NCBI GenBank assembly: GCA_029981855.1
Contig: JARRCS010000006.1
Span: 53,533-117,532 of the forward strand
Direction: 5' to 3'
Length of the DNA stretch: 64,000 bases
Source of the DNA: Halanaerobiales bacterium
Lineage (GTDB): Bacteria > Bacillota > Halanaerobiia > Halanaerobiales > DTU029
Positions 9,388 to 10,218 of the stretch are shown piece after piece. The position numbers and the translations under genes are program-made. Each line of letters starts with the position of its first letter. Position 1 is the first letter of the stretch. The notes beneath the pieces were generated by a model. That model saw only the letters and a list, made by a program, of their open reading frames with translations, was not told the origin of the DNA and made no database searches.

Positions 9388-9645
9388 CTACTCGGTTACC
9401 TTAGAGGTAAGGGCGGATTTTAAGGTCACTCCCGGGAGATTTCCCAGCTGCCCTGTCATAGCACCTATTTCATCCGGGGTTCCTTCAACGATCAGGGCAA
9501 TAATCGATAGCTTCAATTCCCGGGAAGGCACACCCATTCTCCCGATAATTATTTCCCCGAACTCACTTAAAATCTCATTAAGCTTTTTTGTTACTTTATT
9601 ACGTTCCTCAACTACAATCCCAATCACACCAATTCTTTTTTGCAT
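9388..9645 (-). CDS. TM1266-family iron-only hydrogenase system regulator (putative)
   Basis: An 85-residue ACT/NikR-C-like small protein: MQKRIGVIGIVVEERNKV, then IIGRMGVP and a C-terminal half with GTPDEIGAMTGQLGNLPGV. Proteins of this family are routinely found beside [FeFe]-hydrogenase maturation genes and are annotated as hydrogenase system regulators, although the mechanism is not established. A GGGAGG site precedes the ATG. First gene of the hyd maturation operon, downstream of the attenuator-like leader. Confidence 0.8.
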   Translation of the reverse strand: MQKRIGVIGIVVEERNKVTKKLNEILSEFGEIIIGRMGVPSRELKLSIIALIVEGTPDEIGAMTGQLGNLPGVTLKSALTSKVTE

Positions 9646-9728
9646 CTTTATACTACCTCCCTTTTATGTTTTTTCTGTCCGGTTAAAAGAAAACCTAACT
9701 TAGTCCCTAAAAAAGCTCCCACGCCAAC

Positions 9729-9818
9729 AAAAAAGCCCTACCTGAAAAGACAGATAGGGCTTATTGAGGCATAAGAAAATACCCTTCCCCTGTTTTCAGG
9801 CTATCCCTTAAACACAGG
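9729..9818 (-). promoter_or_regulatory. Leader attenuator with alternative terminator and antiterminator upstream of the hyd operon
   Basis: On the minus strand a hairpin with arms AAGCCCTA (9755-9762) and TAGGGCTT (9733-9740) is followed by a run of T (9729-9734), a good intrinsic terminator about 85 bases before the first start codon. Its internal TTTTCAGG (9741-9748) can instead pair with CCTGAAAA (9793-9800), blocking the terminator. That segment in turn can be sequestered by CCTGTGTTT (9810-9818) pairing with AAAACAGG (9789-9796). These mutually exclusive pairings are typical of riboswitch or protein-controlled leaders. The upstream part (about 9820-9889) can form a further hairpin. I do not recognise a known aptamer class. 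Confidence 0.6.
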
Positions 9819-9895
9819 AAGAAACCTTAGATTATAAATCCTTGTGAGCAGGTTAATAATTTACCCCGGTCACTCAGATTATTCTTTTCATATTC

Positions 9896-9934
9896 AGTAT
9901 AACACAAAAAATAGTTTTGTGCAAGTATTCACAA
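9896..9934 (-). promoter_or_regulatory. hyd maturation operon promoter with overlapping Rex operator
   Basis: Minus strand TTGCAC (9919-9924), 17-base spacer, TATACT (9896-9901). Overlapping the -35 box is TTGTGCAAGTATTCACAA (9917-9934), which matches the Bacillus-type Rex box TTGTGAAWWWWTTCACAA at all but two positions. A rex gene is present at 28783-29424. The predicted transcript start near 9889 gives a leader of about 245 bases. Confidence 0.7.
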
Positions 9935-10051: not shown

Positions 10052-10080
10052 TTTACAAATATCTGATTTTGTTGTACAAT
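10052..10080 (+). promoter_or_regulatory. Promoter of the intergenic small RNA candidate
   Basis: Plus strand TTTACA (10052-10057), exactly 17 bases, TACAAT (10075-10080); each hexamer is one base from consensus. It points away from the hyd operon and is followed by an intrinsic terminator and no open frame with a ribosome binding site. Confidence 0.6.
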
Positions 10081-10086
10081 ATTGAT

Positions 10087-10218
10087 GACCCCTTATAAGA
10101 CCATAATTAAATAAGAAAGGTTTCTGTTGTTTTATAAGGGGATAATACATTTTTTCATTTTTTATCCTCCTTTTTTTAAGAGAGCCAGCTGTTAAACAGC
10201 TGGCTCTTTCGGTTTTTT
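10087..10218 (+). ncRNA. Candidate small regulatory RNA with exposed UCCUCC segment
   Basis: About 130 nt from the predicted start to a strong terminator. Elements in order: a stem between CCCCTTATAA (10089-10098) and TTATAAGGGG (10132-10141); a U-rich unpaired region containing TCCTCC (10165-10170), complementary to the Shine-Dalgarno core; then a perfect 12-bp hairpin AGAGCCAGCTGT / ACAGCTGGCTCT with a TAA loop (10181-10207) and a U-tract (TTCGGTTTTTT). A C-rich unpaired motif plus U-tract terminator is the architecture of Firmicute base-pairing sRNAs such as FsrA or RsaE. No family is recognised. It ends just before the convergent histidine kinase gene. Confidence 0.55.

What the first reader, a model, noticed from the sequence alone, without database searches (positions are those of the whole stretch)
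9646..9889. Possible new riboswitch-like attenuator controlling H-cluster maturation genes
The leader of the hyd operon holds an intrinsic terminator whose 5' part can pair with an upstream CCTGAAAA segment. That segment can itself be sequestered by CCTGTGTTT. Three mutually exclusive helices plus an upstream hairpin is the logic of a transcriptional riboswitch. I recognise no known aptamer. A ligand linked to the pathway (tyrosine, SAM, iron, NH3, a cluster precursor, or the TM1266-type protein) would be new.
Basis: partly seen in the sequence, partly recalled or inferred. Interest (0 to 1): 0.78.

Follow-up and report, generated by a model that had tools for sequence, protein, structure and literature searches.

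The report
Shared RNA switch for hydrogenase assembly
This leader belongs to a folded RNA that is absent from the Rfam catalogue, was found in 96 of 398 sampled genomes of its phylum, mostly just before genes that build the metal centre of hydrogen-making enzymes, and likely acts as an off-switch that is predicted to be read by the small protein TM1266.

Summary
The feature is real and larger than first reported. The leader (minus strand, about 9889-9646) carries two copies of one hairpin motif (9879-9838, 9821-9784), then an intrinsic terminator (9762-9733). Both hairpins covary strongly (65 sequences: 294 double-changed cells against 75 +/- 12 in shuffles) and match no Rfam family at its threshold. 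A model of the RNA finds it in 96 of 398 genomes of the phylum; by my tally 99 of 110 places lie before TM1266, hydE, hydF or hydG and six before importer genes. Behind the second hairpin lies a terminator, or the gene's own ribosome-binding site. RNA and TM1266 go together: 93 of 179 hydG+TM1266+ genomes have it, 0 of 35 hydG+ genomes without TM1266.

Best reading: a new family of attenuator leader RNAs for [FeFe]-hydrogenase maturation, folded = off, likely read by TM1266, perhaps with an imported small molecule. Effector and direction of switching are inferred.

The parts
9896..9923 (-). predicted promoter: TGCACA, 16 nt, TATACT with extended -10 TG; predicted start about 9889
   Evidence: in 43 of 64 homologues a -10-like hexamer (at least 5 of 6) lies within 30 nt upstream of the RNA, against 17.8 expected from upstream control windows
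9765..9883 (-). the conserved RNA (hyd-maturation leader RNA), full model match
   Evidence: 98.5 bits with model R2, 105.1 with R1; the window is in both training sets
9838..9879 (-). domain 1 hairpin: AUCU-GA-GUGA-C-CGGG..CCUG-C-UCAC-AA-GGAU
   Evidence: 10 of 12 pairs of this helix show changes on both sides in A5
9784..9821 (-). domain 2 hairpin: CUUCCU-GU-GUUU-AA-GGG-AUAG-CCU-GA-AAAC-AG-GGGAAG
   Evidence: inner GGG/CCU nearly invariant, the 4-bp helix between the two internal loops covaries
9782..9800 (-). 3' strand of domain 2; would pair with the terminator 5' arm (antiterminator) in the on state; purine-rich and placed like a ribosome-binding site in many homologues
   Evidence: 29 and 30 of 36, two seeds; duplex -12.1 kcal/mol in the window; pairing in vivo is inferred
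9761..9772 (-). small frame ATG CCT CAA TAA between the RNA and the terminator; function unknown
   Evidence: sequence; an ATG 6-21 nt behind the outer helix is enriched in homologues, 46 of 96 non-redundant against 20.8 expected
9733..9762 (-). intrinsic terminator
   Evidence: stem -19.2 kcal/mol
9388..9645 (-). TM1266-type protein, 85 aa, likely RNA partner
   Evidence: TIGR03959 109.6 bits, PF21699 107.9 bits, weak NikR_C 21.7 bits
7880..9337 (-). hydG
   Evidence: TIGR03955 540 bits
6443..7705 (-). hydF
   Evidence: TIGR03918 593 bits
4891..6393 (-). aspartate ammonia-lyase (aspA)
   Evidence: NF008909 682 bits
3647..4801 (-). hydE
   Evidence: TIGR03956 377 bits

Best explanation
The leader carries a conserved two-hairpin RNA that likely works as an attenuator of the H-cluster maturation operon, in which the folded second hairpin would leave the terminator free to form (off), and which is likely read by the TM1266-type protein encoded just behind it. 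Shown: the RNA, its covariation, its homologues before TM1266, hydE, hydF and hydG and before two kinds of importer, and its co-occurrence with TM1266. Inferred: when the second hairpin is open, its 3' strand would pair with the terminator's 5' arm, or serve as a ribosome-binding site (of the gene, or of a small frame in front of the terminator), and the operon would be on; TM1266, perhaps with an imported small molecule, would hold the hairpins closed, a negative feedback. Untested: any binding, any ligand, any read-through.
For: Covariation: 15 sequences, 10 of 25 pairs changed on both sides; 65 sequences, 294 double-changed cells against 74.9 +/- 12.1 shuffled, 92.1% of cells paired against at most 64.5% in slid controls (the count of pairs with a double change, 18 against 14.7, is weaker, 4 of 500 shuffles reach it); RNAalifold finds 24 of the same 25 pairs unaided. 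Context: R2, 53 places in 50 of 398 genomes, 50 of 53 before a hyd maturation gene or TM1266; R3, 110 places in 96 of 398 genomes, 99 of 110 by my tally (with 12, 51, 52, 57, 59, 60, 62, 63, 75, 94); another order, 22 of 22 genomes, 33 of 34 places FeFe-linked. In 66 TM1266 loci not used in training, 31 of 34 hits at E <= 0.05 lie on the same strand within 450 nt upstream of TM1266, a zone of 4.4% of the search space. TM1266: 96 of 96 RNA genomes have it against 200 of 398; within hydG+ genomes 93 of 179 against 0 of 35 without it, Fisher 3e-10; stratified by family 0.005. Platform: domain-2 3' strand against terminator 5' arm better than shuffles in 30 of 36; in L146, L148, L149, L152 (hydG) and seven importer leaders the same strand lies at ribosome-binding-site distance from the gene's start codon; an ATG at that distance is enriched, 46 of 96 against 20.8. 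Folded = off in both layouts.
Against: No RNA-binding fold or basic patch was shown for TM1266; mean net charge is only +1.8 in 46 RNA+ and +0.9 in 28 RNA- proteins. 104 of 200 TM1266 genomes have no detected RNA, and 27 of the 66 TM1266 loci have no hit upstream even at E <= 10. Most RNAs sit at the 5' end of TM1266 itself, so co-occurrence is partly co-inheritance. In the window both hairpins and the terminator are stable without any effector, and the antiterminator duplex (-12.1) is weaker than the terminator (-19.2), so the on state needs kinetics or a factor. No terminator was found in 29 of 65 leaders, among them 7 of 11 from Halanaerobium. The complementarity to the terminator 5' arm is not unique to that strand: the 5' strand of domain 2 (22 of 36, p 0.0006) and of domain 1 (26 of 36, p 0.01) show some too. 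Importer genes point to a small molecule, which RNA alone might bind.
Confidence: 0.46

Rival explanations
1. A classical riboswitch: the RNA itself binds a small molecule linked to [FeFe]-hydrogenase assembly, and TM1266 is merely another product of the same pathway.
For: Near-invariant internal-loop and helix letters; two copies of one small domain in at least 50 of 65; two unrelated importers in the regulon: ECF S component at 7 places and SsuABC-like ABC transporter.
Against: No aptamer family matches. The RNA was found in 0 of 35 hydG+ genomes that lack TM1266, which a TM1266-independent switch does not predict. A single domain is only about 40 nt.
Confidence: 0.32
2. A ribosome-based device reads the leader: the second hairpin hides the ribosome-binding site of a small frame, and a ribosome on that frame keeps the terminator from forming; no dedicated effector, or another protein, acts on the hairpin.
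For: An ATG 6-21 nt behind the outer helix of domain 2 in 44 of 65 (14.1 expected), 46 of 96 in the non-redundant wider set (20.8 expected); 26 of 43 such leaders outside Halanaerobiales.
Against: The frames' lengths and codons vary; their reach into the terminator and stops at its base are no more frequent than in shifted frames (21, 17, 21 and 5, 7, 3 of 24).
Confidence: 0.15
3. Constitutive hairpins and an ordinary terminator, conserved for RNA stability rather than for regulation.
For: No expression data exist here; both hairpins and the terminator fold without help.
Against: Conserved unpaired letters, reuse before different first genes and importers, alternation between terminator and ribosome-binding-site layouts, TM1266 link.
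Confidence: 0.05

Closest known systems
Moco RNA motif (candidate molybdenum-cofactor riboswitch, PMC2408646; listing with start of abstract seen)
   Same: an orphan-type leader RNA before genes that build one metal cofactor and before importers; works through terminators or ribosome-binding sites (last clause recalled)
   Different: no Rfam model, Moco's included, matches our members at threshold; different genes; two small GA-rich hairpins
PyrR-binding leader / protein-read attenuators (recalled)
   Same: operon-encoded small protein that may read its own leader and others of the regulon; terminator and competing hairpin
   Different: only a sub-threshold match (26.4 bits, gathering 54); the partner protein is unrelated
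Glycine riboswitch (tandem homologous aptamers; recalled)
   Same: two copies of one domain in tandem, copies also found singly
   Different: no Rfam match; domains of about 40 nt with two internal loops, not three-helix junctions (recalled)
TM1266 / TIGR03959, solved as 2nzc
   Same: named a putative regulator of iron-only hydrogenase systems; called a transcription factor in PMC9679718 (passage)
   Different: the passages and listings I saw name no target for it; the RNA offers one

Membership tests
Any Rfam 15 family | match at or above the family's gathering score | tested here: not met
   window (SRP RNA and three tRNAs, all elsewhere), 10 loci and 12 loci with 0 matches; permissive scans of the leader (best rnk_leader 27.7 bits against 50) and two homologues (none)
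Cis-regulatory attenuator leader RNA | conserved structure in 5' leaders with covariation | tested here: met
Cis-regulatory attenuator leader RNA | mutually exclusive pairing with a terminator or ribosome-binding site | tested here: inconclusive
   complementarity of domain-2 3' strand and terminator 5' arm enriched, but the terminator wins in the window's energies; no experiment
Riboswitch | direct, specific binding of a small molecule by the RNA | not testable with these tools
   needs in-line probing or equilibrium dialysis
TM1266-read leader | RNA found only in genomes that encode TM1266 | tested here: met
   96 of 96 against 200 of 398 overall
TM1266-read leader | TM1266 binds the RNA | not testable with these tools
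   no protein-RNA assay; charge comparison uninformative
T-box, TPP, glycine, Moco, SAM riboswitches | their covariance models in Rfam | tested here: not met
   (gathering threshold, whole Rfam)

The most novel reading that the evidence does not exclude
TM1266 is the founding member of a new class of small-molecule-gated, NikR-C-like RNA-binding attenuation proteins, with its own two-hairpin RNA code, that coordinates H-cluster assembly with import of an unidentified small molecule across Bacillota and beyond.
Probability: 0.4. Interest if true: 0.92.

Novelty: new variant of a known kind. Interest (0 to 1): 0.8.

Why it matters
How cells control assembly of the [FeFe]-hydrogenase active site is largely open (my knowledge), and TM1266, over cut-off in 200 of 398 sampled genomes, has had only the label 'putative regulator'. 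A shared RNA target gives both a testable mechanism. The importers in the regulon point to a small molecule, possibly unknown, linked to hydrogenase assembly. The RNA could also be used to tune hydrogen-producing enzymes.

Tried and rejected
Known riboswitch or leader in Rfam: rejected. A small frame whose stop abuts the terminator looked striking in eight leaders, but shifted frames do as well (5, 7 and 3 of 24): dropped as an argument; the enrichment of the ATG itself stands. An H-cluster intermediate as sole ligand: disfavoured by G339 and G438, which have RNA, TM1266 and an ABC importer but no HydG or HydF over cut-off (drafts, 96 and 98% complete). A charge signature of RNA binding in TM1266: uninformative. 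PDB relatives of the ECF S component: none; of the ABC substrate-binding protein: mainly sulfonate, taurine and nitrate binders, no substrate call possible.

Literature: no listing or passage that I saw ties a leader RNA or riboswitch to hyd genes. In five papers (PMC11109978, PMC8632094, PMC2864571, PMC6429828, PMC7266159) I saw only zero counts for the search words. Passages only: PMC11736057, PMC2887804, PMC3543383, PMC10418091, PMC8457756 (110, predicted Rex sites at hydG and TM1266 of C. thermocellum), PMC7039931, PMC9679718. The 2017 survey of 224 candidate RNAs is not held; I believe, from recall, that its motifs are mostly in Rfam.

Weak matches judged false from context: G018 and G029, so 18 rather than 20 of 38; gyrA-like places in G014, G205 and others; L206, L257. 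In 17 genomes behind named loci 5 had no match at E <= 0.1; of 14 places 8 lie before TM1266 and 6 elsewhere.

Rows dropped: L072 (near copy of L071), L067 and L005 left out of A1/A2, L030 out of A2; the last model uses the 65-row A5 (E <= 0.01), not the 72-row A4. My transcribed hydG+ list has 214 genomes where the tool's tally is 213. The 99 of 110 tally and the ABC-permease reading in L156 are by hand.

Full report
What is there. The hyd operon on the minus strand reads TM1266-hydG-hydF-aspA-hydE. Its leader of about 244 nt begins, by promoter prediction, near 9889. It holds two hairpins, 9879-9838 and 9821-9784, a purine-rich strand, a small frame (ATG CCT CAA TAA) and an intrinsic terminator at 9762-9733. 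The leader folds far better than shuffles (z -5.0).

It is conserved. A DNA search of 101 relatives gave matches in 10; those of G004, G036 and G012 lie before TM1266, and that of G001 directly before hydF-aspA; the remaining short ones were not pursued. nhmmer on the fetched loci extended this to 12 Halanaerobium genomes (the match in L067 is weak, E 0.003). A 15-sequence alignment gave 25 pairs in two hairpins, 95.7% of cells paired, 10 pairs changed on both sides; 0 of 500 shuffles did as well on four of five measures, 8 of 500 on the fifth. RNAalifold alone proposes the same helices. G036 carries one copy before TM1266 and another before hydF.

It is widespread and specific. Model R2 (21 sequences) gave 53 places in 50 of 398 genomes of the phylum at E <= 0.05. 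The next gene on the strand was TM1266, hydE, hydF or hydG in 50 of 53; the others were an ECF S component (L151), an unknown 185-aa frame (L138) and a contig end that reads, by eye, like an ABC permease (L156). Model R3 (65 sequences; covariation) gave 110 places in 96 of 398 genomes at E <= 0.01. By hand tally from coordinates and reading frames: 99 before a hyd maturation gene or TM1266 (one, G048, with a transposase-like gene between it and hydF), 3 before an SsuABC-like ABC transporter (L156 among them), 3 before the ECF S component, 1 before an unknown frame, 1 at a contig end, 3 taken as false. R3 was trained partly on these genomes. A check on loci outside the training set: in 66 TM1266 loci, 31 of 34 hits at E <= 0.05 fall in the same-strand 450-nt zone upstream of TM1266 (4.4% of the search space), the other three just behind TM1266 on its strand; 35 of 66 loci have no hit in the zone at that threshold, 27 none even at E <= 10. 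In the order of Thermosediminibacter all 22 genomes held have a match, 33 of 34 places being FeFe-hydrogenase-linked: 7 TM1266, 5 hydE, 14 hydG, 7 ECF S component. The last is named HymD in a UniRef entry for T. oceani, a name given to an Fe-only hydrogenase subunit in PMC2887804 (passage). Weak copies before TM1266 were also seen in three Smithella and one Desulfonauticus draft (whole-genome E 1.8e-4 to 0.06), outside the phylum.

Anatomy. Both hairpins share one plan: CCUGA - four covarying pairs - GGG..CCU - G. - the partner strand - AAGGG; identity between the copies within one RNA is 0.69 at 20 corresponding positions against a shuffle maximum of 0.48. At least 50 of 65 have both copies; others, such as L146, have only the second. 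Behind the second copy lies a terminator (found in 36 of 65) or, in the shortest forms, the start codon of hydG or of the ECF S gene, with the hairpin's own 3' strand (AAGGGAGG, GAAGGGGG) at ribosome-binding-site distance. An ATG at that distance is enriched also elsewhere (46 of 96 non-redundant leaders, 20.8 expected), opening small frames of unknown role.

How it likely works. In both layouts the closed second hairpin means off: it hides the ribosome-binding site, or it uses up the strand that could open the terminator. That strand is more complementary to the terminator's 5' arm than shuffled arms are in 30 of 36 leaders (Wilcoxon 6e-7; related sequences, so the p is optimistic). In the window itself hairpin and terminator are both stable without help and the antiterminator is weaker, so an effector or co-transcriptional timing must be assumed for the on state. 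This part is inference.

Who reads it. All 96 genomes with the RNA encode TM1266 over the curated cut-off, against 200 of 398; in hydG+ genomes 93 of 179 with TM1266 have the RNA and 0 of 35 without it (Fisher 3e-10, phylogeny ignored; 0.005 when stratified by the six families that mix both states). The link holds where RNA and TM1266 lie apart (for example G141, G230, G301, G303). TM1266 matches NikR's C-terminal domain weakly and its own family, and shows no DNA-binding family. Two genomes of one genus, G339 and G438, have RNA, TM1266 and an NMT1/SsuA-type ABC importer but no HydG or HydF over cut-off. I therefore favour TM1266 as reader, perhaps gated by a small molecule that the importers bring in; a pure metabolite riboswitch is the main rival. 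Against: 104 TM1266 genomes show no RNA, and most RNAs sit next to TM1266 anyway.

Known or new. No Rfam family reaches its threshold at the RNA in the 23 sources scanned; three permissive scans give nothing near threshold. Searches of the open paper library showed no hyd leader RNA; subscription journals are mostly not held. PMC11736057 (passages and word counts) treats the hyd operon and aspA and has no word beginning riboswitch, regulator or transcription. The kind, an attenuator leader RNA, is known; the family, its genes and its link to TM1266 appear new.

Noticed in passing
L151, L200, L202, L211, L213, L214, L215, L217: An ECF transporter S component (PF12822; 'HymD' in a T. oceani entry) directly behind a single-domain copy of the RNA, in most of these loci followed by a branched-chain-type ABC transporter; substrate unknown.
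   Followed up: partly
L243, L254, L253, L256, L156: An SsuABC/NMT1-like ABC importer behind the RNA, alone or with TM1266; in G339 and G438 without HydF or HydG over cut-off in the genome.
   Followed up: partly
L138:3235-3792 (-): A good copy of the RNA before a 185-aa protein without any Pfam or NCBIfam match (G205).
   Followed up: no
L249:264-2394 (motif orientation): In G048 a transposase-like gene lies between the RNA and hydF, which are adjacent in G041 of the same genus.
   Followed up: no
window 10052-10209 (+): A promoter-like site (TTTACA-17-TACAAT) about 100 nt before a 14-bp hairpin with T-run on the plus strand, between the hyd leader and a histidine kinase gene: a possible small RNA or just a terminator.
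   Followed up: no
L044, L068, L071, L075: In several Halanaerobium leaders the RNA is followed by short frames (such as MSKFK-stop) and a GGTACC-type palindromic repeat instead of a terminator.
   Followed up: no
137 leaders of A5 and A6, region behind domain 2: An ATG 6-21 nt behind the outer helix is about twice as frequent as expected (73 of 137 against 32.4), opening frames of very variable length.
   Followed up: partly
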